Below are positions 3,773 to 55,969 of a DNA stretch of 64,000 nt, piece by piece. Each line of letters begins with the position of its first letter. The first letter of the stretch is position 1. The stretch covers positions 27,481 to 91,480 of the forward strand of contig JAJDDY010000033.1 of assembly GCA_029260075.1 (NCBI GenBank), read 5' to 3'. The notes under the pieces are model-generated. The model was given only the letters and a program-made list of their open reading frames with translations, had not been told where the DNA came from and did no database searches. Position numbers and translations under genes: made by a program. Source of the stretch: Phycisphaerae bacterium. GTDB lineage: Bacteria; Planctomycetota; Phycisphaerae; UBA1845.

Positions 3773-3798
3773 GTTAGTGTTTGGAAGAGGCGTTCGGT

Positions 3799-6975: not shown

Positions 6976-7134
6976 GGTTCAGTTTCTCTCGTTGATCACT
7001 CGTTCAATCACAACAGCCACATCGTAACGCAAGAGGTCGAGTTGATCCATTGTCGCCGTGGCGCCGGCAGGTGAGCCTCGACATCGTGGTGCACGCGCGT
7101 GGACCGTTTTTCGTCGATCGCATATTATGCGCCC

Positions 7135-9306: not shown

Positions 9307-9457
9307 CGCTCTGTCGCACGTCGAAGGGTGGATCTACCGAGCCGCCACCGTAAGGAAGCGGACGTTTGAAATCCCGTCGTGACAGCTTGCAACCGCTTCC
9401 TCACGGTCATGGCTAGGATCGGACGAGCCCGTGACTGGAGTCGTCACAAAGCGCTAG
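9303..9457. mobile_element. Family B MITE-like element, copy 1
   Basis: About 155 bp bounded by CTAACGCTCTGTCGCACG on the left and the inverse of CTAGCGCTTTGTGACG on the right. It encloses two long inverted arms around 9339-9360 and 9392-9414 (…CGTAAGGAAGCGG / CCGCTTCCTCACGG…). The left end supplies the stop codon of the DUF255 gene. It has no coding capacity and looks non-autonomous. Confidence 0.8.
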
Positions 9458-9604
9458 ATCAAGGCCGCTGCTCCTGCGCTTTCGGCTCGGATCGTTTCGA
9501 ATCTTGCCAGCGGCGCGTCCGTGCCGATAATCGAGTGCGTCCGCTGTCCTTCTTGGAACGGCGACAATCCGATTGCGCTGACCAACGCAACCGAGAGGGC
9601 AGTG

Positions 9605-11248
9605 ATGAGCACATTTCATATCTTGGCAGCGGCGACGTACTGGCTGCTGATCGTTCTGTGGACGTTCATCTTTACGTTCTACCTGATTCGTCTCCGGCGT
9701 CAGCGTCTGAAGAATGCGTTGTTCGTGACGCTCATCGTCGTTTTGGCGATCGATGCGTTTCGGAGCCTGTTCGAGAGCTTGTACTTTGGTGTTTGGTACA
9801 CCGCTCTGGCCGGAATGCTTCCGGAATCTATTCAGACCTTCTTGGAATATCCCGGGGCCGTGCTGATTCCCAAGCTACTCAACGTCGTAACGGCGTCGAT
9901 AATTATTCTCATTCTGCTGCGTCGGTGGATACCGGAGGAGGAGGCGGAGCTACGAGCCTACAGAAATCGAGAGCGGGACTTGCAAAATGAAGTGGCCGCC
10001 CGCACCGGCGCATTGAAGGAGACGAATGAACGACTTCGCCAGGAGATCGACGAACACTCGCGAGTCAAGGACGCACTAAGGCATGCACAGAAGATGGAGG
10101 CTGTGGGCCGGCTTGCGGGTGGTGTCTCCCACGATTTCAATAACCGACTGATGACGATCCTGGGCAACGCCGAGCTGGTGTTGAAGACGCTGGACCAACC
10201 GACTGCCGAGATTGATCGAGAGCGGATCAGGTCGTGCGTGGAAGATATGAAGCTCGCCGGCGAGCGCGGGGCGGAACTCGTACGACAACTGCTTACCTTC
10301 AGTCGAAAGCAATTGGTCAAGTCAGAAACTCTGGATACATGTCGCATACTCGCGCAAACCAAGGAAATGTTGACGTGTTTGATGCCGGAAAACATCAAGT
10401 TGGAGACGCTGGTCGCGGCCGACGTTTCCTCGATCTTCGGCGTGGCCAGTCAAGTCGAACAAATCATCATGAACTTGGTTCTCAATGCGAGGGACTCGAT
10501 CGCGAGCAACGGCCACGTTTCTGTGGCGTGTATGAACGCAAGTGTTTCTAACGAGGAGTCTGCCGTTCATCCGGGATCTCGACCCGGTCCACACGTGATG
10601 ATTTCTGTTAAGGACGATGGGATCGGCATGACGTCGGAGTTGGTTCTGAACATTTTCGAACCGTTCTTCACAACCAAGCCCATCGGAAAAGGCACCGGTC
10701 TGGGCCTGGCCAGTGTTGACGGTCTCGTGAGTCAGATGAACGGATTCGTGACCGTTGAAAGCGAGCAAGGCATTGGGACGATCTTCAAAGTGTTCCTACC
10801 GGCGGCTGCCGGGACCCTGCTGGAGCCATCGAAACCCGAAAGAGAACGTTGTGCGGGTGACGGCGAAACTGTGTTGGTTTGCGAGGACGAACCGGCCGTC
10901 CGAAAGGTGACGTCGCAAATCTTGAGGGAGGGCGGGTATCGTGTCGTGGAAGCCGAGAACGGAGAGGCGGCGCTCGACATCTTGCGGAGCGGTCGCAACG
11001 CGGTTGACGTGCTCGTTACCGATCTCGTCATGCCGGGATTGACCGGGCAGGAGTTGTCTCAACAGGCCGGTCTGGAATGTCCGAAGCTGCGCACGATTTT
11101 TGTCTCGGGTTATGCGTCGACCGCCGCGAACAGCGATCTCACAACGACGCAAAAGCAAGCGTTTCTGAACAAACCCTTTGAGATTGCCGAGCTGCTGGGG
11201 ATGGTGCGGGCCGCCCTCGACGCGCGCAACGTCGACAAAGAAGCATGA
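9605..11248 (+). CDS. Hybrid sensor histidine kinase with C-terminal receiver domain
   Basis: 547 residues from ATG 9605, preceded by GAGAGGG; an in-frame ATG at 9521 is less likely because it precedes the first membrane helix with poor sequence. Three hydrophobic segments (about 5-30, 38-70, 88-107) form the membrane anchor, followed by a coiled coil (112-165). The dimerisation/phosphoacceptor domain has GGVSHDFNN with His176. The ATPase domain carries [10 protein letters not shown] (N box), DDGIGM (G1) and [11 protein letters not shown] (G2). The receiver domain has CEDEPAVR and phospho-acceptor Asp473 (VTDLVMPG). There is no periplasmic sensor domain, so the signal may be sensed within the membrane. 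No output regulator is nearby. Confidence 0.9.
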
Positions 11249-11336
11249 TCGACGTCGCTTCGCGTGGCCTGTGGTGCCTCTTCAGACAACATCTCGCTTG
11301 GCGGCGATTATCTTCGTCTCCTTGGGAGCGTACACG

Positions 11337-13517: not shown

Positions 13518-13533
13518 AGTCGCGGCGTTGCTG

Positions 13534-13560
13534 CTGGTGCGTGAATCCTTTCGCGCACCC
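13534..13560. repeat. Family D palindrome, copy 1
   Basis: GGTGCGTGAATCCTTTCGCG followed by CACC forms an imperfect hairpin with GTGCG/CGCAC arms, 17 bp after the molybdoenzyme stop. Confidence 0.75.
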
Positions 13561-13596
13561 GCGTTCGTGCGCAATCCTATCCGTGCGTCGCTGTAG

Positions 13597-13719
13597 CAGC
13601 CTGTTGAACAAGACGGGTATTCAATCACGTCGCCGCGAATCCGCCTGTGACAACGGGACTTGTCCCCGTCAAGAGGCGGAAATCGCTAATGGATCACCGG
13701 CTGGAAGCCGGTGCCACAC
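13597..13719. repeat. Family A element, right end missing
   Basis: It starts with the terminal repeat CAGCCTGTTGAACAA, continues through a CCGCCT…AGGCGG stem enclosing GGGAC/GTCCC arms, and ends with the ACCGGC…GCCGGT hairpin and GCCACAC. The expected right terminal repeat (TTTTTCAACAG…) is replaced by family D sequence. Confidence 0.85.
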
Positions 13720-13725
13720 CGGAGT

Positions 13726-13792
13726 GCTGGTGCGTGAATCCCTTCTCGCACCTATCCGAAAGGCCGCTGGTGCGTGAATCCCTTCTCGCACC
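13726..13792. repeat. Family D palindrome, two copies
   Basis: Two direct copies of GTGCGTGAATCCCTTCTCGC (13726-13752 and 13766-13792) follow each other 40 bp apart, abutting the family A copy. Both can fold on their GTGCG/CGCAC ends. Confidence 0.8.
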
Positions 13793-14005
13793 TTTCCGCA
13801 CGCCTGCGTCCGCACCGTGTACAGCGGATGGGAATCCGCCGAAGATTGTGCCGAGATAGGAATCACGGCACAGCGATTCTCGCTCCGCTCCAAATATCCC
13901 CAACCGCCGATATGTCCCAACACCGCATGATGACAACCGCTTAGCTTCAGTGCATCATTGACAAGACCGATAACCAAGGCATAGCGACTCTATGGAGCAT
14001 TCGGT

Positions 14006-15400
14006 ATGCGTTTCGCGGCCATCATCGCCAAGACCACAATCACACTCTTGCTCATCGCGGGGGGCGTGTACCTCTGTTTGGGTCTGTGGCTGACATCGAG
14101 CGAATGGAACCCGACGGTATTCGGTCGTTACAGCTCTAAGTGGTTCATCGTGGCAATGGGCGTGAGTGCGACGGTTGTCGCGTGCGTCGTTGTCGCCATA
14201 CGCGCTGTGTGGGAGTCAGCCGTGCTGTCGAGGGACGCCACGTGCCTGTCGCTTCGAAAGAGGATGGCCTTCTGCGCGATCATTACGGGAGTTGGTTTGA
14301 TCGGGAGCGAAGTTCTGCTACGGGTTGTCTCGCGGGAGCACCGGGTCGAGCTCGCTGGCAACGATTTGGCGTCCGCGCGTTCTTTTCATTCTTCTCTTCA
14401 ATGGGCTCATCGCGTTGAGCAAGACGGCCAACTTGTTCGGGCGTTTCGTGGACGCGTCTTTGACACGAAGAAACATGCGACGTGGCGGATCGCCTGCTTG
14501 GGTGGTTCCACGACGAACGGATTCATGCTTCCTGAGGAAGAGACGTGGCCGGCGATTTTGGAAGAGTTGTTGCGCGATCGCGGTTTGGATGTTGAAGTGA
14601 TCAACGCCGGTCGGGCGTGGTATACGACGGCCCAGTCGCTGGTCAGTTACACACTCGACGTTCGCTTCTTCGACCCCGACCTCGTGATTGTGATGCACGC
14701 ATACAACGATCTTGGCCGAAGCTTTCCGCTTCCTGGCGAAGCTCCGTTCGAGCGAGATTACGGATCCTATCAAGGCCCGATGCGCCGTCTGCTCGAACCG
14801 ACGCGACGTAGTGAAGACACATCTTCGTGGTCGTATGTACTTGGCGCATCCGCACTCTATCGTTCACTGTGTAGGGTCACCGCCATCGACCGAATGTTCT
14901 ACAAATCGCTGAGCGCATCACGGCAACGACCGGCGGTAGCTGCGACCGTGGACGTCGGCCTCTCGGGGTTCCCAGCTATTCAGTCGCACCGGGACAATCT
15001 GGAATACCTCGTCAAACTTTGTCATGCCGACGGACGTGGCGTGATTCTACTTACGCAGGGGCACCTTTTTCGCCATGAGCGCTACGCCGACCGTCCGTCC
15101 AACTGGTTCACTCAGAGCGGGTCAGCCGTATCGGCGAACAGCGTGGCCGACGCCATGGACGAGTGCTCGCGAAGCATTCAAGCGGTCGGCGGCGATCTTG
15201 ACGCGCCGGTCGTAGATGCGGCCAGTGCTCTGGGAAGCAACCCCGACCATTTTCTCGACCACCTGCACCTCGCGTTGGCTGGCGACCGCGTGATCGCGAA
15301 ACTGGTTGCACCGGTTGCAGCGGCATTGCTGACTCAACGCGATTCCGAAAGTCGTCAAGCCGACAACCGACCGGCCACACCGGCCGACTGGCGTCCCTAA
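14006..15400 (+). CDS. Membrane-anchored SGNH/GDSL hydrolase-like protein
   Basis: 464 residues with three N-terminal hydrophobic helices (about 9-31, 46-66, 86-106). A catalytic domain follows: block I CLGGSTTNG (Ser168), block III-like HAYNDLGR, and the C-terminal DHLHL with Asp418 and His421. This is the layout of SGNH esterases that deacetylate or transacylate cell-surface sugars. GGAG lies about 10 bases before the ATG. The catalytic part probably faces the periplasm. The substrate is unknown; a role in modifying exopolysaccharide is only inferred from the wider glycan genes. Confidence 0.8.
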   Translation: MRFAAIIAKTTITLLLIAGGVYLCLGLWLTSSEWNPTVFGRYSSKWFIVAMGVSATVVACVVVAIRAVWESAVLSRDATCLSLRKRMAFCAIITGVGLIGSEVLLRVVSREHRVELAGNDLASARSFHSSLQWAHRVEQDGQLVRAFRGRVFDTKKHATWRIACLGGSTTNGFMLPEEETWPAILEELLRDRGLDVEVINAGRAWYTTAQSLVSYTLDVRFFDPDLVIVMHAYNDLGRSFPLPGEAPFERDYGSYQGPMRRLLEPTRRSEDTSSWSYVLGASALYRSLCRVTAIDRMFYKSLSASRQRPAVAATVDVGLSGFPAIQSHRDNLEYLVKLCHADGRGVILLTQGHLFRHERYADRPSNWFTQSGSAVSANSVADAMDECSRSIQAVGGDLDAPVVDAASALGSNPDHFLDHLHLALAGDRVIAKLVAPVAAALLTQRDSESRQADNRPATPADWRP

Positions 15401-16075
15401 GCGCGAAAGCAATTCCTGTCCGCCGCTGCTGCCCTCGCGTATCGCGGCGACGCGGCGGCCGTCACATCGGCTGTGGGCAGTTCCGACGCGATCCCCCTGG
15501 TAGATTCTGTCCCAGTCCCGAGTGCCCCATACAAATGAACAAGTATCAGACCGGAAATGCGGCAAGATAGACCAGGATTCGGGGTGAAGGTCATTCGTAA
15601 GCCAACTCTACAGGCTTGCGGAACCAGTTCTGAGAGATTTGCAATTGGCCTCTGGCACCCAACATGCCGGCTGATCACGCTGTGCCCGCCAAGCGTGTTC
15701 GTTGCGAACCTGGGCGCTGAGTGGCCGAAGTCCGTGCCGATGAGCCGATGATGATCCCAAGACCTTGCAGAACTACGACGACGGGGCCAGTCGCGTTAAG
15801 TCGCGCCTATTGAAAACTTCGACGGCGCATGATAGGACCGGGCGAAAGGACAGATCAGACGCTTGAGACGGATCAGTTGCATGAGTCTGAATCGTTCAAC
15901 GTGGGCAGGCGCTCAGAGGATCCTTGCGCTGAGTTCGTGCGCGTGTGGTAAGACGTATCAGAGGGTTCGCGACAAACCGAACCGCGCCCGTGAGGAAGCG
16001 GTTTTCATTCGCTAGCCCGGTCACTTCCTCACGCGTGCGGCGCAGTAAACCCGTCACTGCATGTGTGCCAGAGCA
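15401..16075. other. 675-bp convergent intergenic region
   Basis: No convincing gene. The first ~570 bp are unique sequence, with short open frames on both strands lacking start signals or recognisable residues. The right end is a degenerate family B element whose terminus forms the stop codon of the coiled-coil gene. Confidence 0.6.
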
Positions 16076-16079
16076 CTAC
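15975..16079. mobile_element. Family B element, degenerate copy 2
   Basis: Read on the minus strand it begins TAGTGCTCTGGCACA, matching the family B terminus TAGTGCTCTGTCACG. It then shows TGACGGGTTT and the two arms (GTGAGGAAG… / CCGCTTCCTCACGG). The far terminus is not recognisable. The terminal TAG is the stop codon of the adjacent minus-strand gene. Confidence 0.65.
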
Positions 16080-16834
16080 TCGTCGCCAAGCAGGCCTCCG
16101 TTCTCTATTCCGTTTTCAAGAATGACCTGCACCATGTGCTTCGATGCTTCGGACGTTCTACCCATTTCCGCATAGATGTCCTTGAGTGCGAAGCGAATGG
16201 CGGTGCGCGCGCCGACGTTCTTCGACTTTTCGAGCAGTTGCTCAAGTTGTGCGCCCGCAGCTTCTGGATGGCCGGCGGCGAGGTGTAGCTCGACGAGTGA
16301 TTGCGTGGCCATCAGGATGGCCTGCGGCGGATCGAAAGCGAGTTCACGCCAACTCGCGACGTACTCAAGTCGGTCGGTCATGGTCATCAGGTCACGTCGC
16401 TCCGCGTCACGCTCCTGGGCCACCATCGCGCGTTCCAGTTCGATTTGGGCTCGCTGCATCTGCGCTTGAACTTCCACAAGCTCGCGACGCAGTCCGTGGG
16501 CCGCGTCCTCGTTCCCGTCGATTTCCATACGCTCCAACACCGAGCGAAGGTCGACTTCCTGGAGACGAACTCGCTGGAGCTCGTGCGTCATCTCACGGAC
16601 GCGAGCCTCTTGATCTTGCTCACTTGCCTCGCGGTGCTGTTCGACCTGCCGAATTGCTTCGGCGATGGTTCGAACCTGCTTTGCGTATTCCCTTTTGCTC
16701 TTCTCTTCGTCCGACCGGCCATCTGTGATTTCATCCCCACCGCGCGCGGGGCCAACCGCGCGGACCGATTCGAGCGTCATCAGAATCGTCAGAAGTGTTG
16801 TGCCAACTACGAGGGTCTTCCAATGGGACAACAT
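16076..16834 (-). CDS. Secreted coiled-coil protein of the sigma/anti-sigma operon
   Basis: A 252-residue protein with a signal peptide (TLVVGTTLLTILMTLESVRA). A long charged coiled coil (about residues 40-160, rich in Glu/Arg/Gln) is followed by a TPR-like helical tail (about 170-240: QSLVELHLAAGHPEAAGAQL…). AAGGAG lies six bases before the ATG, inside the 3' end of the anti-sigma frame. It belongs to no family I can name. As third gene after an ECF sigma factor and its anti-sigma factor it may be a periplasmic partner or target of that pathway. The stop codon is the terminus of a family B element. Confidence 0.75.
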   Translation of the reverse strand: MLSHWKTLVVGTTLLTILMTLESVRAVGPARGGDEITDGRSDEEKSKREYAKQVRTIAEAIRQVEQHREASEQDQEARVREMTHELQRVRLQEVDLRSVLERMEIDGNEDAAHGLRRELVEVQAQMQRAQIELERAMVAQERDAERRDLMTMTDRLEYVASWRELAFDPPQAILMATQSLVELHLAAGHPEAAGAQLEQLLEKSKNVGARTAIRFALKDIYAEMGRTSEASKHMVQVILENGIENGGLLGDE

Positions 16835-46487: not shown

Positions 46488-48638
46488 TCAGTTCACCGGG
46501 TCCGCCTCGGGGATTGGTTTCGGTGTTGGCGGTGGGGGGTTGATAATTCTGTCCAGAATTGCTCGCGTGGCTTCGACGTTGTGAAGCGGTCCGACGCGGC
46601 GAAGCGTTGCGAGTGTCTTCCGGCCGGCGTCATCCGCGACCGCGTCGGCGAGGGCAAGTCGGCGTTGAACTTCCGCGTCCCACTTGGACAGCATGCCCTC
46701 GAACGCTTCTTCGCTGTCTTCGTGGCAATCCATGCACATCGCATCCACAGAAGCGAGTGTGGCCGGTTCATCGAGGTCGTGACAAGATTCGCAATCGACG
46801 CTCTCGGCCATGACATCGGCGCGAATACCGAAGGGATTGAAGTCCCTGAGCGTGCCTGAGCGAAACGCGGCGGTCTGCTCGTGGCAGCCTGTGCATGTCG
46901 GTATCGGTGCAGCGCCGCCGGTGTGGCACTGGTCACATCGTAAGGTTGCGTGGCCACCCTGAAGTTCATAGGGGTGAACGAACTCGCCTTGCTGGATTAC
47001 GCCGATCTTTCCTCCGTTCTTCAGGGGATTCAGGAAAGTGTGGCAGGTGCTGCATTCATGGCTGATTCGCTCGTTGCGCTGGTTCACGTGCTTACCGTCG
47101 TGGCATCGAAAACAGCCCGATGAGTACAGGTGCCCAATGTTGTCGGGATAGGTCTGCCAATTCACTTTCATGTCAGGGAAGAAGTACCTGCGATAGATGT
47201 CGCGTACTCCGTCGATAGCGCCATGTACGGACGCCTTGTTCGATTCGATGAGTTCAGGATAGTTTTCTTGGTAATACTCGGTCAGCGACGCTCCGATGCG
47301 CGCCTCGGCGGTATCCACGTCCGGGTAGGATTCTGTGAGCACCGCCACCGCCTGGCGCTTGATGAAGGGGAGTTGCGTGTCGATGCGTCCGGTCTCCAGG
47401 TAAAGGTCGACCGCTTCCTGCGGCGATCGAAATTTGTGCGCCGGGCGGTTGTGGCAATCCATACAGTCGAGTTGGCGAATGTCGCCATCCGGTCGCGGAT
47501 CAGAATTCGGTCGGCCGTCGGATCGGTAGATCGATTGTCGTCCCGCTTTGTCCGTCATGCGGACCCAGCTTATGTCCTGGAGTTCGTCGTCGGTCGCGAC
47601 GTATTCGATTTGCCCGGCCAGCGCCATGTGCATATGAATCCCCTCAGCCCGCCCGATCGATTCGTCGCCGCCGCCCGTGTTAAGAAGCATATCGAGTTCA
47701 TACTTCGTGTTGTGTTCATCCGACTTGAAGTGGACGAGTTGGCGAAGCTGTGAACCAAAGAATTTCTTCGGCCAGTGACATCGCTCGCACGTATCGCGCG
47801 CTGGACGGAGATGTCTAATGGCCGGCGCTATCGGTCTCGAGAAGCTGTCGTTCCACATCGCCAGAACCTGGCGCGTGCCGGAGAGCTTCGATCGAACGAA
47901 CCAGCTTGCGCCAGAACCGATGTGGCATTCGGCGCACGTGACCCGCGCGTGGGCGGAGAACTCGTACGTTGTGGCTTGTGGATTCATTACGGCGTGGCAC
48001 GCGGTCGCGCAGAACTGCGTGGAATCCGTATAGTGGTAACCGTGGTAACTCGTCACGCCGACGATCGGTAGCAGTGCGAAGGTCCCGAGGAGGAAGTATT
48101 TCGCTATCCGTCGTTGGGCGGGGTCGTTTAAGTCGATCCTCGGGAACCGGAACGCCAGTTGCAGGGAGGGATCGCGCCGACGCAGCCGCCAACTCTTAAA
48201 GAGAATACCGAGGGGAATGAACGCTGCGCCAATGACCAAGACGCCGGGGAGAATGAGATAGCCTACAATGTCGACGTAGGGATTGGTCGTTGGTGTTACT
48301 AGCGTAAACAGCCAAAACGTCAGCAGCAAGGCTACTGTGATCTGCGTGACGAATAGCGCTATGATCGTGACGGTATTGTTCCAAAGCGGTCGACGCGATC
48401 GAACAGACGCTTGATGTTGAACGACCGGCGCCAACAACTGAGTGGGACCGAGTGATCGCTCTACGGGTGTGTCGCCGTCGATGAGTTGACCTGAATCAGG
48501 GGGCCTCGGGACCGGGATGACGTCGCTGTGGTCGCCATCCCTACTGGATGACGGATCCGTTGACCGTTGTTCATCCACGAAATCGTCATCCTCGACGCGG
48601 CCGGAAGGCCCCGTATCCGCATCCACTTCGTTGGGCAC
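46488..48638 (-). CDS. NapC/NirT-like 10-haem cytochrome c with N-terminal membrane helices
   Basis: 716 residues from GTG 48638, preceded by TGAGGTGA. After a ~85-residue acidic, Pro/Ser-rich cytoplasmic N-terminus come three hydrophobic helices (about 90-225). Then follows CATACHAVMNPQATTYEFSA, the NapC/NirT quinol-dehydrogenase entry with a CX3CH first haem site. Nine further CXXCH motifs (CAECH, CERCH, CMDCH, CFRCH, CSTCH, CDQCH, CTGCH, CESCH, CMDCH) give ten sites in all. This is the layout of ImcH-like inner-membrane quinol oxidising cytochromes. It is the last gene of the respiratory cluster. Confidence 0.88.
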   Translation of the reverse strand: MPNEVDADTGPSGRVEDDDFVDEQRSTDPSSSRDGDHSDVIPVPRPPDSGQLIDGDTPVERSLGPTQLLAPVVQHQASVRSRRPLWNNTVTIIALFVTQITVALLLTFWLFTLVTPTTNPYVDIVGYLILPGVLVIGAAFIPLGILFKSWRLRRRDPSLQLAFRFPRIDLNDPAQRRIAKYFLLGTFALLPIVGVTSYHGYHYTDSTQFCATACHAVMNPQATTYEFSAHARVTCAECHIGSGASWFVRSKLSGTRQVLAMWNDSFSRPIAPAIRHLRPARDTCERCHWPKKFFGSQLRQLVHFKSDEHNTKYELDMLLNTGGGDESIGRAEGIHMHMALAGQIEYVATDDELQDISWVRMTDKAGRQSIYRSDGRPNSDPRPDGDIRQLDCMDCHNRPAHKFRSPQEAVDLYLETGRIDTQLPFIKRQAVAVLTESYPDVDTAEARIGASLTEYYQENYPELIESNKASVHGAIDGVRDIYRRYFFPDMKVNWQTYPDNIGHLYSSGCFRCHDGKHVNQRNERISHECSTCHTFLNPLKNGGKIGVIQQGEFVHPYELQGGHATLRCDQCHTGGAAPIPTCTGCHEQTAAFRSGTLRDFNPFGIRADVMAESVDCESCHDLDEPATLASVDAMCMDCHEDSEEAFEGMLSKWDAEVQRRLALADAVADDAGRKTLATLRRVGPLHNVEATRAILDRIINPPPPTPKPIPEADPVN

Positions 48639-48919
48639 GATATCACCTCAAAAAAACGTAAACGACCGGATGTTCCGTCACCGCTTCGGATCGCACCGGG
48701 CGTCGGTTCGCCGTATAGCGCTGAGCAATTGTCATACCAATTCGCTTGATCTCACGGCAATACTGCTTACTTTTCAGGGTACCGGCGAATAATGGGGCTA
48801 CCGGCCAGCTGTAGCGGCGAGGAGGCTGGTCCGATTTCGCGGGATGGCTATGACCGGGTGTTGCTACGATCGAACGACTGTGTCTCGCATTCGACTGGCT
48901 ATGCGTTGCACACGCCTCG

Positions 48920-50977
48920 TCATTGATCCCGCTCGGTTTTCTCGTTTCGCATCTCCCTCGCGTCGGCCGCGTGGCTCGTTCGGTTGCCGGGGACGGGGTT
49001 CCCGGGCAGCGACGCCTCTGGATGCTCCTCGTCGTACATATCACGTGGCATCTTCCCCGACCACCAAGCGGGATTCATCGGATAGACTTGCGGGTTGATC
49101 ACCGTTGCGTACAAGTGCCACACGAGAATGGCGAGCGTCGCTAGCCAAGCCTCGTAGTAGTGAATGACGTGCAGGACATCCAGCAACGTCTTCTTGACGT
49201 GCCAATGTTCAACGACGTAGTTGTCGAACCAAAGGAACATGCCGGTCCCGGTCATGATTAAGGCGCCCCACATCAGCGCCCAGTATTCGCTTTTCTCCAT
49301 ATAGCTGAACCTGCCGAAGCGCGGTTGCGTTGCCCGGAATCCCAGGAAGAACAGGACGTTGTTCTTGATGTCAGCGAGATCACGCCGTGTCACGATCATG
49401 TCGCGTAACCACAGTCTCCCTCGGCGCGTACAGAGGTAGTACGCGTGCCAGAAAGCCCAGGCTACAAACAGAAGCGCCGCCACCCGGTGGATTGGCCCTC
49501 GAAACACGAAACCGGCGCCACCACCCCATCCGAACAGCAATTGAACCCACCATGCGTCCGAAAAGCGAAGCGAGAAACCGCTGATCGCCAGAACCGTGAA
49601 GGAGAGCATGAGCAACCAGTGCTGGGCCACCTCGTTGACGTTGAGCCGCACGATGTGATTCGCTTTCGATCGCCTCCTCACGTATCGCAGCCAATGGGCG
49701 CTGTTGTGTACGAACATCAGACCGATCGTCGCAACAATGAGCCATACATATAGCGAGGCAACCAGACCAGTCCAGTATTCTTCAGTCTCTGCATTGCTAT
49801 GTATGGGCGACTGCGCAAGTTCCGGCGTGATGCCCGGATGGCACGCTCCGCAGGTGGCCTGTAGATTATCCGGATGAATTGGCGATCGTGTGTCCGTGTG
49901 CGGCAGAATGCGATGCCCGCCGTGGCACGAGGCGCAGTTCGCCACGTGGACGTCCTGCCCCTTGCGCTTATGTCCGTGATACGAATCGACGTAGGACTTC
50001 ATCCGGCCAGCCGGTATGCCGTACCGCTCGTTGAGCGCGACCGATTCGTGGCAGGGAGAGCACGTCGCTTCGGCAAGTCGCGCCGCACTTACCGGCGAGC
50101 GCAGATCGGATACGCGTAGGATTCTGTGTTCACCATGACAGCGCGTACAAACCGGCGCATCTGTTTGCCCACGTTGCGCCAATTGCCCATGGATTCCTTC
50201 AAGGTATTCGGCCATGGCTTCCGGATGACATCGACCGCACGTCGCGGGTACATTGAAGTGATAAACGCTCGACTCCGGATCCGTAGCGCTCAGAATGCGA
50301 TGGACCGTCGGGTTGCCATCCTCATCGTTCGCGGAGTGGCAGTCGGCGCAGGTCGCAGCTACGCCGCGACCGTTCGCTACGCCGCTGCCGTGGACGCTTC
50401 CGGTATAGAGCTTGGTCGGCTCGTCCCTGAGGTACGGATTGTCCTTGATCAGGTCCACATTCGTATGGCATCGATTACATGTTACGTCCAGATTGCTCGG
50501 ATTCACGAGCGATTGTTCATGCTCCGGTGCGAGGATTCGATGGGCGCCGTGGCACTGCGAACACGTTGGTGCTTGCGGGTCGGATTCGACGCTGAGGCGC
50601 CCATGTTTGACGTACACGTCGGCTTCGTCCTCATGGCATGCGCCACAGTCCACGTGCGTCGGCGAATCTCCGTGGGGGGTGGGAGAATTCTCATCGAGGT
50701 CTTCGAGTGACACGGACTCGTGGCAGTCTGTACATTCCAGATCTTTATGCACTGACCCAGCGAGAATCTGCGGGAGGGGACCCTCGTCCGCTGCGGCTGG
50801 AGACCGCGTGTGGCAAACTATGCACGCGCTGACCTGTGGGTCTTGGGCTGGCGCTGACTGTGTCGCGAGCGCGCAAACCGCGACGACAATTGCCGGAGCA
50901 AGATGCTGGTTGCTCGATCTCACAGCGCTTCGCCTTTCGCGATACAAGCCGGATCTGCCGTGCGGACCTCGGTGCAT
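48920..50977 (-). CDS. 11-haem cytochrome c fused to a b-type membrane domain (CbcL-like layout)
   Basis: 685 residues from ATG 50977 (GTG 50923 possible). A signal segment (APAIVVAVCALATQSAPAQ) leads to a periplasmic domain with eleven CXXCH motifs, CIVCH at the start to CGACH near residue 380. The C-terminal ~280 residues hold four to five membrane helices with His residues placed as in cytochrome b561/formate-dehydrogenase-gamma type di-haem b proteins (HNSAHWLRYV, VNEVAQHWLLMLS, RGPIHRVAALLFVAWAFWHA, LHVIHYYEAWLA, ILVWHLYATV). Such fusions pass electrons between the quinone pool and periplasmic cytochromes. It lies 281 bp upstream of the NapC-like gene. Confidence 0.88.
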   Translation of the reverse strand: MHRGPHGRSGLYRERRSAVRSSNQHLAPAIVVAVCALATQSAPAQDPQVSACIVCHTRSPAAADEGPLPQILAGSVHKDLECTDCHESVSLEDLDENSPTPHGDSPTHVDCGACHEDEADVYVKHGRLSVESDPQAPTCSQCHGAHRILAPEHEQSLVNPSNLDVTCNRCHTNVDLIKDNPYLRDEPTKLYTGSVHGSGVANGRGVAATCADCHSANDEDGNPTVHRILSATDPESSVYHFNVPATCGRCHPEAMAEYLEGIHGQLAQRGQTDAPVCTRCHGEHRILRVSDLRSPVSAARLAEATCSPCHESVALNERYGIPAGRMKSYVDSYHGHKRKGQDVHVANCASCHGGHRILPHTDTRSPIHPDNLQATCGACHPGITPELAQSPIHSNAETEEYWTGLVASLYVWLIVATIGLMFVHNSAHWLRYVRRRSKANHIVRLNVNEVAQHWLLMLSFTVLAISGFSLRFSDAWWVQLLFGWGGGAGFVFRGPIHRVAALLFVAWAFWHAYYLCTRRGRLWLRDMIVTRRDLADIKNNVLFFLGFRATQPRFGRFSYMEKSEYWALMWGALIMTGTGMFLWFDNYVVEHWHVKKTLLDVLHVIHYYEAWLATLAILVWHLYATVINPQVYPMNPAWWSGKMPRDMYDEEHPEASLPGNPVPGNRTSHAADAREMRNEKTERDQ

Positions 50978-51328
50978 CTACGCGATCGCCTGGCAGTGTG
51001 GCGCGGCACGCGCGTCGGGTACACGAAACTGCAGACAAGACGCCGGTGTCACCTGCATGGCGATCGGATGACCAAGCTCCACAGTGACTGAACAACTGCA
51101 CGACGCGTACCAACCTTCGCAAGAGCGAAAACAATGCGACGTAGGCTGTTCGGTGATCAACTCGGCGTCAACGTATGGCGCCCCAGCCGAGTCTTCGTGA
51201 GCAAGTACAACCGCAAAACTTGCAGGAGCACGAAGCGGGTAGACATGTGCAGTTCAGGTGTAGCCCAAGCGCATAAACATGTGCCAAGTGTGCACCGGAT
51301 GCGAAGCTGAGTTTGAGTAGAGCCCGCT
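50978..51328. other. 351-bp non-coding stretch inside the cytochrome cluster
   Basis: Unique sequence between the 11-haem gene start and the paired family B elements. No gene with plausible codon pattern; a 60-codon open frame (51168-51350) begins in a repeat and is cysteine-rich by chance. It may hold the promoter of the downstream two cytochrome genes. Confidence 0.5.
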
Positions 51329-51481
51329 CTAGTGCTGCGTCACGCATCAAATGACGGGTAGTCAGAGCCGCGGGCGCGAGCCCGCGAACACGCGACAGTC
51401 TTGATTGACCGGAAGAAACGCTCCCTTACGGTCGCGTCTCTGTTTGACCGAACCCTCACTTCAGCCGTGACGCAGCACTAG
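51329..51481. mobile_element. Family B element, copy 6 (tandem with copy 7)
   Basis: CTAGTGCTGCGTCACG at the left end and the inverse CTAGTGCTGCGTCACG at the right. The left inner arm is altered (GAGCCGCGGGCGCGAGCCCG) while the right arm CTCCCTTACGGTCGCGTCTC is preserved. Its right CTAG is shared with copy 7. Confidence 0.85.
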
Positions 51482-51632
51482 TGCTTTGTCACGACTCAAA
51501 TGACGGGTTGGTCCGATCTGAGCCGCGACCGTGAGGGAGCGTTTTTAAGCTGTCACGAGCGGATTTCAAACCTCCGCTTCCTTACGGTCGCGGCTCGGTA
51601 AACCCGTCATTCTAGCTGTGACGCAGCACTAG
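51478..51632. mobile_element. Family B element, copy 7 (complete)
   Basis: CTAGTGCTTTGTCACG to the inverse of CTAGTGCTGCGTCACA, with arms GAGCCGCGACCGTGAGGGAG and CTTCCTTACGGTCGCGGCTC. The last CTAG supplies the TAG stop of the cytochrome b gene on the minus strand. Confidence 0.88.
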
Positions 51633-52807
51633 TGGTCGATCAACGGCGGGCTCGCGCCGACGTCACCGGTGATCTTCTCCGGCCAGCCCATCAGGGTGAT
51701 GTGGTACTTCTGCCCGAAGAAAGTCACGTCGGTTTCTGAAATATGACCGAGATATCCCAGGAACACGGCGGCGGTTAGCCCGAGAATTCCCACGCTGACG
51801 GCAAGAGGACGTTTGCGCGGATGGCGCTCTTTCCCGCGGTCGAGAAATGGCCAGAAGATCAGGAGGGCGAAGGGCACGGAGCAGGCCAGGATACCCAGCA
51901 GGGCACCCGAGGATCCCTCGAAGTACTTCAGTAGTTGATAGCTGGGTAGAAAGTACCACTCCGGTTTGATGTGTGGCGGCGTCATCAGCGGGTTCGCCGG
52001 CTCACCGATCTCCCACGGGGAGACGACGGACAACGTCACCAGTACGGCCACAAGCAGTACCATGACCACGGCTTCCTTGGCCACATGTACCGGGAAGAAC
52101 GGGATGCCGCATTCGCGCGGCGTTGGTTTCTCTTCGCCGACACGCTCCATTGTCGCGAGATTGTTGAGGCGCATCAGGAAGAGGTGTACGGCGACGGTTC
52201 CCAGGAGAATCCAGGGCAGAATGATGACGTGGACGACGAAGAAACGGGATAACGTTTCTGCACCTACGGCATCACCGCCACGAAGAAAATATTGCAGCCA
52301 GTCGCCGATGTATGGCACCTTGCTGGCCGAGTCGGTACCCACGGTCGTCGCCCAAAACGCGACTTGATTCCATGGCAAGAGATAGCCGGTGAATCCGAAA
52401 CCGATCGTACCGATAAACAGCAGCACGCCGGTGACCCATGTGAGTTCGCGGGGCTTCTTATAGGCGCCCATGAAATAGGTTCGGATCATGTGAAACAGGA
52501 CCGACGCAATCATCAGCGTCGCCCCCCATGCGTGAACCTGCCGGTATAGCCAACCGAACTTGGCCTCGCCGGTGATGAATTGAATTGAGGCGTGTGCTTC
52601 GTCCGGCGTCGGGCGGTAGTACATGAGAAGAAGGATGCCGGTGACGGTTTGGCTGAGGAAAAGAACCAGCGCCAGGCTGCCAAACACATGCGCCCAGCCA
52701 GTATGCGGCGGGAGGCGTTTGTAGACCTGTTTGTTGATGAGGTCGCCGGCCAACTTGGTGTCGAACCGATCGTCAAGGAAGCTTCGTATCACTTTCGAAA
52801 AACCCAT
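51629..52807 (-). CDS. Cytochrome b of a Rieske/cytochrome b complex
   Basis: 392 residues, full-length cytochrome b with about eight membrane helices. Quinol-site PEWYFLP lies at about 278-284 (HIKPEWYFLP). Haem-ligating His occur in helices B and D (YRQVHAWGATLMIASVLFHM; RFFVVHVIILPWILLGTVAV…HLFLM), and LPWNQVAFWATTVGT is the conserved cd-loop entry. It transfers electrons from quinol across the membrane together with the Rieske protein encoded upstream. The stop codon lies in a family B element. Confidence 0.95.
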   Translation of the reverse strand: MGFSKVIRSFLDDRFDTKLAGDLINKQVYKRLPPHTGWAHVFGSLALVLFLSQTVTGILLLMYYRPTPDEAHASIQFITGEAKFGWLYRQVHAWGATLMIASVLFHMIRTYFMGAYKKPRELTWVTGVLLFIGTIGFGFTGYLLPWNQVAFWATTVGTDSASKVPYIGDWLQYFLRGGDAVGAETLSRFFVVHVIILPWILLGTVAVHLFLMRLNNLATMERVGEEKPTPRECGIPFFPVHVAKEAVVMVLLVAVLVTLSVVSPWEIGEPANPLMTPPHIKPEWYFLPSYQLLKYFEGSSGALLGILACSVPFALLIFWPFLDRGKERHPRKRPLAVSVGILGLTAAVFLGYLGHISETDVTFFGQKYHITLMGWPEKITGDVGASPPLIDH

Positions 52808-52969
52808 GGGTCTCGTATTCCTCTGCGACTTAGGGGGTGATGGCCAATCCCGCCGGGACGGACCTCACGGCTCGTCCCGATGCTCCTACAGTTCACGGGA
52901 TCGGACTCCCGAAGCCAGCGGCCCAAGATTGGCTAAGTGATCGACGTCGTTGCCGTCGACGATCGCGAG

Positions 52970-53404
52970 TCAGGCCGGCGGTGCGACGTACACCTTGTCA
53001 CCAATTTCCTTAACGACGTACGCTTCAAGCGGTGCCGGTGGGGGTCCGGATACGACTTTGCCGTTGCCATCGAAGACAGCGGCATGGCACGGACAGAGAA
53101 ACTTCTTGCTGTCGGCGTCCCATTTCACAAGGCATCCCAAATGCGTGCAGACGGCAGAAAACGCCAAGAATCCGGACCGCTCTCGTACGACGATGACTGC
53201 TTTGCTTCCGACCTGCAAGGTCTTGCTTCGCCCGGGCTTTAGGTCGATCGCCCCTTCGACTTCTACATTCGTCGAGCCGCCGCGGGCCGCTGGCCAAAGG
53301 TACATCATCGCCGGTATGCCCATCGCGACTCCCGAGACGGCCGAAAACAGGCCGATCATCCAGTCCAGAAATCCACGTCGGGTTGTCGGGCTATTGGGCT
53401 TCAA
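52970..53404 (-). CDS. Rieske 2Fe-2S protein
   Basis: 144 residues. TRRGFLDWMIGLFSAVSGVA is a Tat-type signal-anchor. The cluster motifs CTHLGCLVKW and CPCHAAVFDGNGKVVSGPPP supply two Cys and two His ligands. The start appears to be TTG (53404) because no in-frame ATG precedes the Tat motif. With the next gene it forms the Rieske/cytochrome b core. It lies 17 bp after the 9-haem cytochrome gene. Confidence 0.93.
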   Translation of the reverse strand: MKPNSPTTRRGFLDWMIGLFSAVSGVAMGIPAMMYLWPAARGGSTNVEVEGAIDLKPGRSKTLQVGSKAVIVVRERSGFLAFSAVCTHLGCLVKWDADSKKFLCPCHAAVFDGNGKVVSGPPPAPLEAYVVKEIGDKVYVAPPA

Positions 53405-53421
53405 GATAGACGTCCATCCAA

Positions 53422-54906
53422 TCAGTTCTTGGGAAGCGGCTTGACATAGGCGTGCTCAAGCCGCCTGTACTTTGCGTAGATCAGCACAGCAAAGACGATC
53501 GCGAACGCCCAGATTGGTATCAGTGCCCGAAATCGCCACTCAAGTCCGTCTTCCTGGTTGTCCAACTCCGCATTGACGTCGTCGCACACGGCCGTGAGCT
53601 TGTTGACTTCCGCTTCGACCAGCGAATTGTTCAGGCTGTGTTGTACCGGGGCCAATCCAATCAGATGTGTCTTGGCCTCTTCAAACTTGAACCGCTCGTT
53701 ATCCACGAGCAGGACACCGCGCCCGACTTCGTCGATGCGCTGTGCGGTCCGGACGTAGTAAGATTCTGCCGAAGCGATTTCGTCGATCAGGTTGAAGAGT
53801 TTCGGAAGACTCTCATCGTCTTCCAAATCTTCGTGGCACTCCATGCACGAGGGTAGCGCCTGCGTGATGATATGCTTAGGCTCCGAGTGAATCGCTGCCG
53901 CAATCTGCTCCGCCGTCGGGTCGGATTCTGTCGCGAGCAAGTGGGCGTAGCGCTGAATCATCACTCCAGCGGGTTTGGTGATCCGCTCGATCTGATGGAA
54001 ATACCGGTTTTCGCCACCCCCGTGACACTGTACGCAGCCGTGGTGTTCTTCCTGTTGGGCGTGAATGCTCGTGGCGAAATTCTTGGCTGCGTGCTGGTGA
54101 CACTTGCCACAGACGCTGACGACTGTCGTGAAGCCAGGTGGCATGGCTGAGTGGTTGCCGTGGCACGTAGAGCAAGTGGGCGCCCCGGTGTCCCCCTGCT
54201 CAAGGAGCAGTTGCCCGTGAACGCTCTTCTTATACTCGTCGACGATTTGTACCGGGTGGTCGAACGGAGCCATGATTGCGGCGTCGGCATGGCACGTACC
54301 ACAGGTATCCGGAATGTTCAGCGGGTAGGTCTTGCTCTGTGGTTGATGTTGGTCGAGGATGCCGTGGGTTCCGTGGCAATCGGTACAGACCGCCACCGTT
54401 TCGTCGCCTTGTTCCTTGAGCACCTGACCGTGCCCGCTCGTCCAGTATCGGGCGAGTTGGTCGGTCCGCAGGCCGTAGGGGTTCATCCGCCGAACATCCG
54501 CATGGCATTCGCCGCACCGCTGCGGCACCTCGCTACGTGACGGTTTCCCCTTGAACGTTGATCCGTGGTCGAACGCCATGCCTGAATCGAGCGACCGGTT
54601 CGTGAAACTTCGAAGGACGGCGCCGTCAAGTTGGAATTTCTCGGGACCGCCGTGGCACTCCTGGCAGCCGAGTGTTTCGTGAATCGACCCCGCGAGCTCC
54701 GTGGCTTGTGCGGTATGGCACGTCTTGCAATCGGCGGCTTGAGTCTGCGCCATGCATGTTGATCGGTCTGACGGGAAGAGGGCCGCAACGGCAAGTGCTA
54801 TCAGTGTGTGTCGAAGTTTGTTCAGGGAAATAGAACGAATGTTGCGCGTGGCCGCCTCCATGTGCCTGGCTTGCCCCGACCGTTTCCATCCGACTTGGTC
54901 TTTCAT
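53422..54906 (-). CDS. 9-haem cytochrome c with C-terminal membrane anchor
   Basis: 494 residues from ATG 54906; ATG 54861 is an alternative closer to the signal segment (LRHTLIALAVAALFP). Nine CXXCH motifs occur between CKTCH and CMECH (CQECH, CGECH, CTDCH, CGTCH, CSTCH, CGKCH, CVQCH between). A helical region of about 110 residues without haem sites and one C-terminal membrane helix (IPIWAFAIVFAVLIYAKY) follow. As first gene before Rieske and cytochrome b it probably replaces the small cytochrome c1/c of standard complexes as electron acceptor. Confidence 0.88.
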   Translation of the reverse strand: MKDQVGWKRSGQARHMEAATRNIRSISLNKLRHTLIALAVAALFPSDRSTCMAQTQAADCKTCHTAQATELAGSIHETLGCQECHGGPEKFQLDGAVLRSFTNRSLDSGMAFDHGSTFKGKPSRSEVPQRCGECHADVRRMNPYGLRTDQLARYWTSGHGQVLKEQGDETVAVCTDCHGTHGILDQHQPQSKTYPLNIPDTCGTCHADAAIMAPFDHPVQIVDEYKKSVHGQLLLEQGDTGAPTCSTCHGNHSAMPPGFTTVVSVCGKCHQHAAKNFATSIHAQQEEHHGCVQCHGGGENRYFHQIERITKPAGVMIQRYAHLLATESDPTAEQIAAAIHSEPKHIITQALPSCMECHEDLEDDESLPKLFNLIDEIASAESYYVRTAQRIDEVGRGVLLVDNERFKFEEAKTHLIGLAPVQHSLNNSLVEAEVNKLTAVCDDVNAELDNQEDGLEWRFRALIPIWAFAIVFAVLIYAKYRRLEHAYVKPLPKN

Positions 54907-55348
54907 GTTTCCGTCCCACGCCGCGAGCAAGCGATTAAGTTCAACCGGGCGGCCATCATATCACCGGACCCCCCGACCACAAGCGCAACAAACGCATAGC
55001 GCGCAGTGCAGCTTTCGTTCCAGTTGCGTTGAAGCTTCCCAGGCTTTGTCGATCAAGTAGACAGCCGCTCGCTAGTCGATTCCTTGAAGTACCGATCCGC
55101 CAGTTGTCTGGCAATCTTCGTTCCGACGCGATGATTTTTGAAATACTTTTTTCAGGATCTGCCTCGACTTAGTTTTTCTGACCTACGGAATCGCCAACGG
55201 GACGTTCCGCGATCCGCTGATTGTATCTGTGATTCATGTGCGTGCTCGACACGCGGCGCCGCCGGCCGGAAGTGCTCACGTCATGGATGGACCAGCACGA
55301 ACAGCTCACCGCCCGAAACCCCGTGCGTGACCGTTGCCTAGCGTAAAT
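54907..55348. other. 442-bp region upstream of the cytochrome cluster
   Basis: No gene. An AT-rich patch at about 55130-55180 (TTTTTGAAATACTTTTTTCA) is the only such sequence nearby and is a plausible promoter area for the minus-strand cytochrome operon; specific -35/-10 boxes could not be assigned. Confidence 0.45.
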
Positions 55349-55969
55349 CTAGGGGTTTGATGGTGCAATCGATCTGGCACGCATGGCTACATAGCCGGCG
55401 TCGCCGCCGTCGCCGTTTTCAGATGGGTATCCAAGACTCGACCAACTTGGCTCAATTAGCGCGCCCGACGCATCCCGCTTGCCGACGAATCCGCCGAGCA
55501 CGCGGGATGTGGTTCCATACCCGGATTCGATCATCAGTTGTTGAGCGAGTTTGGCTCGTGATCCGGATCGGCAACCCACCAAGACTTTCGATCGCTTGGG
55601 AATGTTCGCCGACACGACGCGGACGAAGTCTTCGTTAGGTTCGCGTTGGCCTGTCGTCTCGTTGATGACCAACACCGGGATGTTGAGTGATCCGGGAACG
55701 TGTCCGGCTACGAATTCCTCTATCGTGCGCACGTCGAGGTGAAGATAGCCACCGTGGCCATCGAGGAGTTCCTTAGCTTTGACGGTGGAAATATCCGACG
55801 GAAGTGGTGGTGCCTCGGGAACGGATGGCTTTGCGGTTGCGGGCGCTGGTGTTTCAGCGGATTGCGGCGTGGCGGTCGGTGGCGATTTCTTGCTGTCACA
55901 CGCGAATCCAGATAGAACCAAACAAGAGCATAGTGTTGCGGCCAGCGGCCATCGTTTGTGCGGTGTCAC
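55349..55969 (-). CDS. Rhodanese-domain protein, probably exported
   Basis: 206 residues from GTG 55969. The N-terminus (WPLAATLCSCLVLSGFACDS) is a signal peptide, possibly of lipoprotein type with Cys24. A Pro/Ala/Thr linker follows, then a rhodanese domain: LHLDVRTIEEFVAGHVPGSL and the active-site loop VGCRSGSRA with the persulfide-forming cysteine. It probably transfers sulfane sulfur in the periplasm. It lies upstream of the cytochrome cluster on the same strand, separated by 442 bp, so a link to sulfur or redox metabolism is only a suggestion. Confidence 0.82.
   Translation of the reverse strand: MTPHKRWPLAATLCSCLVLSGFACDSKKSPPTATPQSAETPAPATAKPSVPEAPPLPSDISTVKAKELLDGHGGYLHLDVRTIEEFVAGHVPGSLNIPVLVINETTGQREPNEDFVRVVSANIPKRSKVLVGCRSGSRAKLAQQLMIESGYGTTSRVLGGFVGKRDASGALIEPSWSSLGYPSENGDGGDAGYVAMRARSIAPSNP

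What the first reader, a model, noticed from the sequence alone, without database searches (positions are those of the whole stretch)
46488..54906. Respiratory cluster with 30 haem c sites around a Rieske/cytochrome b core
Seen: five minus-strand genes encode a 9-haem cytochrome with membrane anchor, a Rieske protein, a full cytochrome b, an 11-haem cytochrome fused to a b-type membrane domain, and a 10-haem NapC/NirT-like cytochrome. Known: Geobacter CbcL (multihaem plus b-type domain) and ImcH (NapC/NirT-like) oxidise quinol for extracellular electron transfer, and anammox planctomycetes use bc complexes with multihaem subunits. Inference: this cluster brings a bc-type core and two quinone/multihaem modules together, giving a branched periplasmic electron wire. 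No terminal reductase or outer-membrane porin-cytochrome is in the window, so the final acceptor is open. This is my best candidate for an undescribed system.
Basis: partly seen in the sequence, partly recalled or inferred. Interest (0 to 1): 0.8.

Follow-up and report, generated by a model that had tools for sequence, protein, structure and literature searches.

The report
Three-exit respiratory cluster for electron export
Five neighbouring genes in a bacterium that is probably an uncultured planctomycete encode a cytochrome bc-type core, a nine-haem-site protein that is likely its partner, and two multihaem membrane proteins of the ImcH and CbcL kinds; together they are predicted to move respiratory electrons out of the cell, and such genes also sit near one another in several other bacterial phyla.

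Summary
In detail: five minus-strand genes carry 29 CXXCH motifs and one CX3CH. Gene A has the ImcH features published by Zhong and Shi (three N-terminal helices, CX3CH, 5-9 CX2CH) and is 37-38% identical to Geobacter/Geomonas proteins of that build. Gene B has CbcL architecture. Gene C (nine sites) precedes the Rieske gene, and 5 of 120 listed homologues are fused to Rieske, so it is the likely substitute for cytochrome c1/f. C keeps exactly nine further invariant histidines, suggesting electron transfer rather than catalysis. The Rieske protein lacks a potential-raising Ser that the genome's two other bc-type Rieske proteins keep. A conduit-like gene set (large predicted outer-membrane barrel, 5-haem and OmcE-like 12-haem proteins, NHL proteins) lies elsewhere in the genome; in 6 of 19 relatives it lies within 20 kb of C (0.31 expected). 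ImcH-, CbcL- and Rieske/cytochrome b-type genes also cluster in Acidobacteriota, Omnitrophota, Ignavibacteria, Bacteroidota, KSB1 and Zixibacteria. Likely role: three menaquinol exits for extracellular electron transfer. Gene order varies, oxidases are also present, and there is no expression or biochemical evidence.

The parts
53422..54930 (-). Gene C: cytochrome with 9 CXXCH, signal-peptide-like start and C-terminal membrane helix; likely c-type subunit of the Rieske/cytochrome b complex (true start probably near 54861)
   Evidence: fused to Rieske in 5 of 120 listed homologues
52970..53404 (-). Rieske iron-sulphur protein, one N-terminal helix
   Evidence: Pfam PF00355 54.9 bits, cut-off 20.3; CTHLGC/CPCH ligands
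53072..53149 (-). Rieske cluster loops CTHLGC...CPCHAAVF; Ala and Phe at the Ser and Tyr positions that raise potential
   Evidence: meaning of the positions from PMC12954380 passages
51629..52807 (-). Full-length cytochrome b (392 aa): haem-b His92/106 and His193/208, PEWY at 282, cysteines only at 233 and 309, so none at the b6 Cys35 place (place recalled)
50978..51628 (.). 651-bp gap between cytochrome b and gene B with imperfect repeats spaced about 150 bp
48920..50977 (-). Gene B: CbcL-like, 11 CXXCH then a b-type (FdnI/Ni_hydr_CYTB-like) membrane domain
46488..48638 (-). Gene A: ImcH-family cytochrome, three N-terminal helices, one CX3CH, nine CX2CH; last three sites lie beyond the seven-site core shared with Geobacter/Geomonas
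47994..48011 (-). CX3CH motif of gene A (residues 210-215), present in 26 of 26 aligned relatives

Best explanation
The five genes encode a Rieske/cytochrome b core with a likely nine-haem partner, an ImcH-family protein and a CbcL-like protein, which would work as three alternative menaquinol-oxidising exits predicted to pass electrons through an outer-membrane conduit, whose likely genes lie elsewhere in the same genome, to acceptors outside the cell. Shown directly: gene content, motif counts and their conservation, the published ImcH sequence features in A, Rieske-C fusions, gene neighbourhoods, and a conduit-like gene set in the genome. Inferred: (1) C takes the place of cytochrome c1/f and receives electrons from the Rieske centre; (2) with nine motif histidines and nine further invariant histidines, all nine haems of C would be bis-His, so C carries electrons and does not reduce a substrate; (3) a Rieske centre without the Ser/Tyr pair would sit at low potential, suited to menaquinol and a low-potential haem chain; (4) the bc core would conserve energy by a Q cycle, while ImcH- and CbcL-like proteins would serve acceptors of other potentials, as proposed in Geobacter; (5) electrons then pass to the barrel, 5-haem and 12-haem conduit and to OmcE-like extracellular cytochromes.
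For: A has the published ImcH features and is 37-38% identical to five Geobacter/Geomonas proteins with 3 helices, CX3CH and six CX2CH. B keeps 10 of its 11 motif histidines and 14 other histidines in 13 of 13 rows, a Geomonas CbcL-like protein included, and a profile of these rows matches FdnI at E 3e-14. C-Rieske-cytb are contiguous in 14 of 17 relatives' loci examined, and C is fused to Rieske in 5 of 120 listed homologues. C shows 9 + 9 invariant His in 40 of 40 rows. The window-type Rieske has Ala/Gly and Phe at the Ser and Tyr positions in 15 of 15 relatives; the own-genome Rieske proteins beside the oxidase genes and in the third complex keep Ser. The own 12-haem protein matches 7tfs at E 4e-29 and an own 4-haem protein at 5e-19 (PMC11936953 names 7TFS as OmcE). 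The barrel is predicted at pLDDT 87. C lies within 20 kb of the barrel in 6 of 19 relatives with C (0.31 expected), and A in 4 of 17. Of 30 named loci around ImcH-like genes with both flanks over 9 kb, 11 hold cytochrome b, 16 a CbcL-like gene and 9 both. A and B co-occur among 39 relatives: 14 both, 3 A only, 1 B only, 21 neither, Fisher p 6e-7 (kinship not corrected; strong matches only, see full report).
Against: No expression, protein or redox data. The conduit is not in the window, and its presence does not track A or C significantly, as 32 of 39 relatives have a barrel (p 0.09 and 0.05). The genome also holds two COX1-family oxidases and a narH gene, so other acceptors are available. One relative (G020) has C without Rieske/cytb in the 19 kb examined. 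None of 5 Geobacter/Geomonas loci (flanks from 3 to 10 kb or more) and none of 11 Planctomycetota loci of the same scan (several short) has cytb in the flank fetched. Gene order varies, and the 651-bp and 281-bp gaps argue against one operon. In three Acidobacteriota loci the linked Rieske keeps Ser, so low potential is not general; and Kustd1480, which has Phe at the Tyr place, still measures +335 mV, so the argument rests on the Ser.
Confidence: 0.6

Rival explanations
1. The Rieske/cytochrome b/C complex is an ordinary complex III that passes electrons to a soluble cytochrome and then to oxygen or nitrogen-oxide reductases; A and B are chance or loosely related neighbours.
For: The genome encodes two COX1-family oxidases and a narH gene. 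In 10 of 17 relatives A is not within 20 kb of C on the same contig.
Against: A second Rieske/cytochrome b set, whose Rieske has Ser and Tyr, lies next to the main oxidase genes. C lies within 20 kb of the barrel in 6 of 19 relatives against 0.31 expected. Linkage of ImcH-like and cytochrome b genes recurs in six other groups, mostly with a different cytochrome b clade.
Confidence: 0.2
2. The same modules run inward: electrons from extracellular Fe(II), Mn(II) or a partner cell enter through the conduit and reduce quinone through B or the bc core.
For: CbcL/MtoC/MtrH homologues occur in Fe(II) oxidisers (PMC6295460 passages). Suarez 2023 reports manganese and iron oxidase genes in Planctomycetota MAGs (PMC10732223 passages).
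Against: ImcH homologues are reported only in Fe(III) reducers (PMC6295460). A low-potential Rieske centre would fit electron release from menaquinol better than uphill uptake (inference).
Confidence: 0.13
3. The complex serves an anammox-like nitrogen metabolism, feeding hydrazine-synthase-like or nitrite-reducing cytochromes in the periplasm.
For: The genome has hydrazine-synthase-like alpha and beta-gamma genes in tandem. C has a weak structural likeness to the HAO/NrfA family. Seven Phycisphaerae MAGs with such genes were proposed as possible anammox bacteria (PMC10732223).
Against: The hydrazine-synthase-like scores are far below NCBI cut-offs (98 of 800; 174 of 1250 bits). C has a spare invariant histidine for every haem, so no open catalytic site is expected. 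Cytochrome b and Rieske differ from the anammox hexa/octahaem types.
Confidence: 0.06

Closest known systems
Geobacter ImcH (inner-membrane quinol oxidase for high-potential extracellular acceptors)
   Same: Three N-terminal helices, CX3CH after helix 3, CX2CH core, NapC/NirT-like stretch; 37-38% identity over the core.
   Different: Three more CX2CH at the C-terminus (9 against 6); next to CbcL-like and bc genes, unlike the 5 Geobacter/Geomonas loci fetched. Zhong and Shi 2018 list 0 ImcH in Planctomycetes.
Geobacter CbcL / MtrH / MtoC
   Same: N-terminal multihaem part fused to a FdnI-like b-type membrane domain; six histidines of the membrane half are invariant in 13 of 13 rows, a Geomonas CbcL-like protein included.
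   Different: 11 motifs against 9 in the Geomonas protein; 28-33% identity.
Geobacter ext operon (ExtHIJKLMNOPQS), selenite/tellurite reduction
   Same: Rhodanese, multihaem c, Rieske and cytochrome b genes clustered (PMC5877670 passages; PMC2825233 passages).
   Different: ExtP is a short chain; the Geomonas gene I take for it (by its neighbours, L182) pairs with another complex of the window's genome in the tree, on long branches. ExtP model 211 of 290 bits. No blastp hit (E 1e-3) between C and the Geomonas 10-haem protein. No ImcH or CbcL in the published gene list.
Anammox Rieske/cytochrome b complexes (Kuste4569-4574, Kustd1480-1485, Kuste3096-3097)
   Same: Multihaem c subunit in place of cytochrome f/c1 in the first two (PMC12954380 passages).
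   Different: One full-length cytochrome b, nine haem sites, Ala/Phe Rieske, no NAD(P) oxidoreductase gene among the eight genes scanned. Two other complexes of the genome, on C54, look more like anammox types.
Porin-cytochrome and OmcE nanowire systems
   Same: Large predicted outer-membrane barrel beside 5-haem and 12-haem proteins, the latter with an OmcE-like domain; two listed barrel homologues carry porin-type Pfam domains.
   Different: No Pfam match for the G010 barrel and no NCBIfam match for the own one; NHL proteins and a 1508-aa NHL-19-haem fusion accompany the sets.

Membership tests
ImcH | three N-terminal transmembrane helices | tested here: met
   hydropathy peaks at residues 90, 128, 178; 3 also in the five Geobacter/Geomonas proteins
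ImcH | atypical CX3CH next to the membrane part | tested here: met
   26 of 26 aligned rows; definition from PMC6295460 passages
ImcH | 5 to 9 CX2CH motifs | tested here: met
   nine in 26 of 26 rows
ImcH | sequence kinship with Geobacter-group ImcH (31.5-49% between groups) | tested here: met
   37-38% identity, within residues 73-580, to L117, L121, L135, L142, L145; these are ImcH by architecture, not by an annotated name
ImcH | quinol oxidation for extracellular respiration | not testable with these tools
   needs a mutant or enzyme assay
CbcL/MtrH/MtoC | N-terminal part with 3-23 CX2CH | tested here: met
   11
CbcL/MtrH/MtoC | C-terminal HydC/FdnI-like b-type membrane domain | tested here: met
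   PF01292 42.2 bits, cut-off 30.1; FdnI E 3e-14
CbcL/MtrH/MtoC | six transmembrane helices | tested here: inconclusive
   simple hydropathy finds four after the signal in B; counts in relatives vary
Rieske/cytochrome b complex | four haem-b histidines and PEWY-type Qo motif in cytochrome b | tested here: met
   His92, 106, 193 in 37 of 37 rows and His208 in 36 of 37 (one gap); PEWY checked in the window protein only
Rieske/cytochrome b complex | Rieske CxHxGC/CxCH ligands | tested here: met
canonical bc1 or b6f | mono-haem cytochrome c1 or f | tested here: not met
   none among the eight genes scanned; nine-site C in its place
Geobacter ext complex | ExtP-type cytochrome b | tested here: not met
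   211 of 290 bits cut-off; tree places the Geomonas ExtP-like chain with the genome's C54 complex, long branches
anammox Kuste4569-4574 / Kustd1480-1485 type | four-helix b6 plus separate subunit IV | tested here: not met
   single 392-aa cytochrome b with both Pfam halves
anammox Kuste4569-4574 / Kustd1480-1485 type | NAD(P) oxidoreductase gene in the cluster | tested here: inconclusive
   none among the eight genes scanned; genes from 56260 on were not scanned
HAO/NrfA multihaem fold (for C) | shared fold | tested here: inconclusive
porin-cytochrome conduit (in the genome, not the window) | outer-membrane barrel with periplasmic and surface multihaem cytochromes | tested here: inconclusive
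   barrel predicted; PDB matches generic, Mtr complex chain 6r2q_B at rank 10, TM 0.35; location of the cytochromes not shown

The most novel reading that the evidence does not exclude
A Q-cycle (proton-translocating) bc complex is wired straight into extracellular electron transfer through a nine-haem bis-His adaptor on an HAO-like scaffold, and is bundled with ImcH and CbcL as a three-tier quinol-oxidising hub. The same bundling arose with at least two different cytochrome b lineages across six or seven phyla. This would be the long-missing energy-conserving quinol oxidase of metal-respiring bacteria.
Probability: 0.33. Interest if true: 0.85.

Novelty: new variant of a known kind. Interest (0 to 1): 0.62.

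Why it matters
In Geobacter, the protein that links the inner-membrane quinol pool to the periplasm in the manner of complex III was called uncharacterised in 2010 (PMC2825233 passages), while ImcH and CbcL are studied one by one. A recurring gene bundle that joins both to a multihaem Rieske/cytochrome b complex, and in some planctomycete relatives to a barrel and nanowire-like cytochromes, gives a concrete set of proteins with which to ask whether extracellular respiration is coupled to a Q cycle. It also points to extracellular respiration in Phycisphaerae-like planctomycetes, for which the papers I saw offer only MAG-based hints (PMC10732223, PMC13264449; passages).

Tried and rejected
Rejected: the cluster as a member of the Geobacter ext operon or of the anammox hexa/octahaem complexes; C as an ExtN homologue (no blastp hit at E 1e-3); C as a catalytic nitrite or hydroxylamine reductase (nine spare invariant histidines); the upstream rhodanese lipoprotein (55349-55969) as part of the system (no rhodanese hit among the ORFs called in the 24 loci, 23 of which surround A-like genes).

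Led nowhere: viral contig scan with B found nothing. Promoter/terminator scan was at background (2 promoter-like against a shuffled mean of 3.6; 10 terminator-like against 8.1). Barrel fold search: the rows I recognise among the 50 listed are outer-membrane barrels of many kinds. C-type tblastn hits are inflated by shared haem motifs and were not used for claims. The tree has long branches (L065, L182, L105_12136, L064) whose places are unsure.

Results against the reading: no cytb or B beside ImcH in 5 Geobacter/Geomonas loci and no cytb in the flanks of 11 Planctomycetota loci of the same scan, several of them short contigs; G020 has C alone; barrel presence is not associated with A or C; co-occurrence tests ignore kinship. 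Rows dropped before the counts: six relatives with only weak A matches (E 1e-6 to 1e-3) and twelve with only weaker B matches (best E 1e-29 to 1e-69); G007 was kept for A as a contig-end fragment. For the Rieske table 39 loci were searched and 26 gave both motifs.
Full report
WHAT IS THERE. The window is G000:C27:27481-91480 of a 4.9-Mb, 93-contig genome. Those listed homologues of gene A at 60-67% identity that bear an organism's name come from Phycisphaerae, Phycisphaerales or Planctomycetes/Planctomycetota MAGs, so a planctomycete is likely. Five minus-strand genes, in transcription order C, Rieske, cytochrome b, B, A, span 46488-54930. They carry 9, 0, 0, 11 and 9 CXXCH plus one CX3CH in A. 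Two thousand shuffles per multihaem protein never gave more than two motifs.

GENE A IS AN ImcH-FAMILY PROTEIN. Zhong and Shi 2018 (PMC6295460, passages) describe ImcH homologues as three N-terminal helices, an atypical CX3CH next to the membrane part and 5-9 CX2CH, with 31.5-49% identity between the Geobacter group and others, and list none in Planctomycetes. A has all of these: helices near 90, 128 and 178, CX3CH at 210 and nine CX2CH in 26 of 26 aligned relatives. Five are Geobacter/Geomonas proteins at 37-38% identity with three helices, CX3CH and six CX2CH. The last three motifs of A lie outside that shared core. For its ten motif histidines A keeps ten other invariant histidines and Met218.

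GENE B IS CbcL-LIKE. It has eleven CXXCH and a Ni_hydr_CYTB/FdnI-like membrane domain (A5 profile to FdnI, E 3e-14). A Geomonas protein with nine motifs and six helices is 28-33% identical. In 13 of 13 rows, ten motif histidines and fourteen others are invariant. Helix number in B itself is not settled by hydropathy.

RIESKE TUNING. In PMC12954380 (passages) loss of the Ser or the Tyr near the cluster lowers the potential of the yeast protein by about 130 or 65 mV, and two anammox proteins with the Ser measure +303 and +335 mV (the second has Phe at the Tyr place, so the Ser matters most). Of 39 loci searched, 26 gave both cluster motifs; the 15 planctomycete relatives of the window type among them have Ala/Gly and Phe at these places, three Acidobacteriota loci keep Ser. 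The window's own is CPCHAAVF. The two other bc-type Rieske proteins of the genome, one beside oxidase genes and one beside a cytochrome b-dihaem fusion, keep Ser. A low-potential Rieske centre is therefore predicted here, not measured.

NOT THE EXT OR THE HEXA/OCTAHAEM ANAMMOX KIND. The Geobacter ext cluster also joins rhodanese, multihaem c, Rieske and cytochrome b (PMC5877670 passages; PMC2825233 passages). The Geomonas chain that I take for ExtP by its neighbours (L182) pairs with the genome's other cytochrome b on C54 in the tree (99/96, long branches), apart from the window clade. The ExtP model scores 211 of 290 bits for the window cytochrome b. C has no blastp hit to the Geomonas 10-haem protein. 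One C54 complex (Rieske, cytochrome b fused to a dihaem c) matches the description of Kuste3096-3097; the other (b6, separate C-part, 8-haem protein, next to oxidase genes) is closer to the hexa/octahaem types.

WHERE THE ELECTRONS COULD GO. Beside A or C in several relatives I saw a conserved set: 5-haem, barrel of about 690-770 aa, NHL, 12-haem (11 CXXCH + CX3CH), 4-haem, NHL. The own genome has two such sets (C21 and C32), with a 1508-aa NHL-19-haem fusion on C32. The C21 barrel is predicted at pLDDT 87 with about 30 strands. The PDB matches listed are outer-membrane barrels of many kinds, with the Mtr complex chain 6r2q_B (MtrB, recalled) at rank 10. The 12-haem protein matches PDB 7tfs at E 4e-29 over residues 42-240 and a C32 4-haem protein at E 5e-19; PMC11936953 names 7TFS as OmcE (passage). 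The barrel lies within 20 kb of C in 6 of 19 relatives with C (G009, G010, G012, G015, G020, G022), against 0.31 expected from random placement, and of A in 4 of 17. In G012, barrel, C, Rieske, cytochrome b and A lie within about 10 kb. Presence alone is uninformative because 32 of 39 relatives have a barrel (p 0.09 for A, 0.05 for C).

HOW GENERAL. Of the 80 named loci around ImcH-like genes, 20 hold cytochrome b, 19 Rieske and 40 a CbcL-like gene in the flank available. Of 30 with more than 9 kb on both sides: 11, 11 and 16, with 9 holding both cytochrome b and a CbcL-like gene. The 20 loci with cytochrome b come from Acidobacteriota (7), Omnitrophota (3), KSB1 (3), Zixibacteria (3), Ignavibacteria (2) and Bacteroidota (2), labels by me from record titles; each of these groups has at least one locus with both. 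In the tree, 15 of 17 rows from such loci form a clade (100/99) distinct from the planctomycete clade, which one Omnitrophota row joins (95/90). So two cytochrome b lineages are linked to ImcH. Among 39 relatives, counting strong matches only (A: 17 relatives; B: 15), A and B co-occur (14, 3, 1, 21; p 6e-7), as do A and C (14, 3, 5, 17; p 3e-4); kinship is not corrected. PMC12133095 (passages) reports ImcH and CbcL homologues with consecutive accessions expressed on an electrode in D. acetexigens, which suggests that the A-B pair is adjacent there too (inference).

NOVELTY CHECK. Ten answered paper searches, seen as listings, and passages of the papers cited here showed no description of this combination in the held library; subscription papers and preprints are not held. 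Nearest in print: PMC6295460 (no mention of Rieske or bc1); PMC10732223 (PCC, R/b and hzs-like genes in Phycisphaerae MAGs, passages; MAGs OFTM174 and OFTM286 of its hzs-like list appear in my scan); PMC13264449 (passages), where six of eight barrel-decahaem conduits of one group also had ImcH- or NapC/NirT-like cytochromes, so an ImcH-conduit link has been noted before.

VERDICT. A real, conserved respiratory module set. The likely role is menaquinol oxidation for extracellular electron transfer with three entry points. Parts are of known kinds; the combination, the 10-site ImcH and the nine-site bc partner are the new variant. Direction, coupling and acceptor remain untested.

Noticed in passing
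L214 (G000:C55:6001-26000): 9549-11309 (+) and 11306-13723 (+): Tandem hydrazine-synthase-like genes: alpha-like (PF18582, 83.5 bits; NCBIfam 97.8 of 800) and a beta-gamma-fusion-like protein with an N-terminal multihaem part (173.7 of 1250). Divergent, but like the hzs-like genes reported for Phycisphaerae UBA1845 MAGs.
   Followed up: partly
L066 (G000:C32:14001-28184): 3274-7800 (+): A 1508-aa protein joins NHL propeller repeats to 19 CXXCH.
   Followed up: partly
L064 (G000:C54:96001-116000): 4028-16401: A second bc-type cluster in front of COX1 genes: ferredoxin-Rieske fusion, b6, 8-helix C-part and a 1410-aa 8-haem protein; its cytochrome b pairs with a Geomonas ExtP-like chain in the tree.
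   Followed up: partly
G000:C52:848-1030 (L002, L047): A fourth Rieske domain of the genome (53.6 bits) near a contig start; I did not assign it to a complex.
   Followed up: no
window 51326-51634: Imperfect 25-34-nt direct repeats about 150 bp apart in the gap between cytochrome b and gene B; a similar translated remnant shows at another place of the genome (L215).
   Followed up: no
L028 10643-13531, L080, L139 and others: A longer CbcL-like paralogue with 19 CXXCH often sits beside ImcH-like genes, sometimes split into a 19-haem and a membrane part.
   Followed up: no
L067 (G000:C88:117001-133000): A narH gene with a 5-haem, molybdopterin/FeS and NrfD-like set nearby, like the conserved cluster described in PMC10732223.
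   Followed up: no
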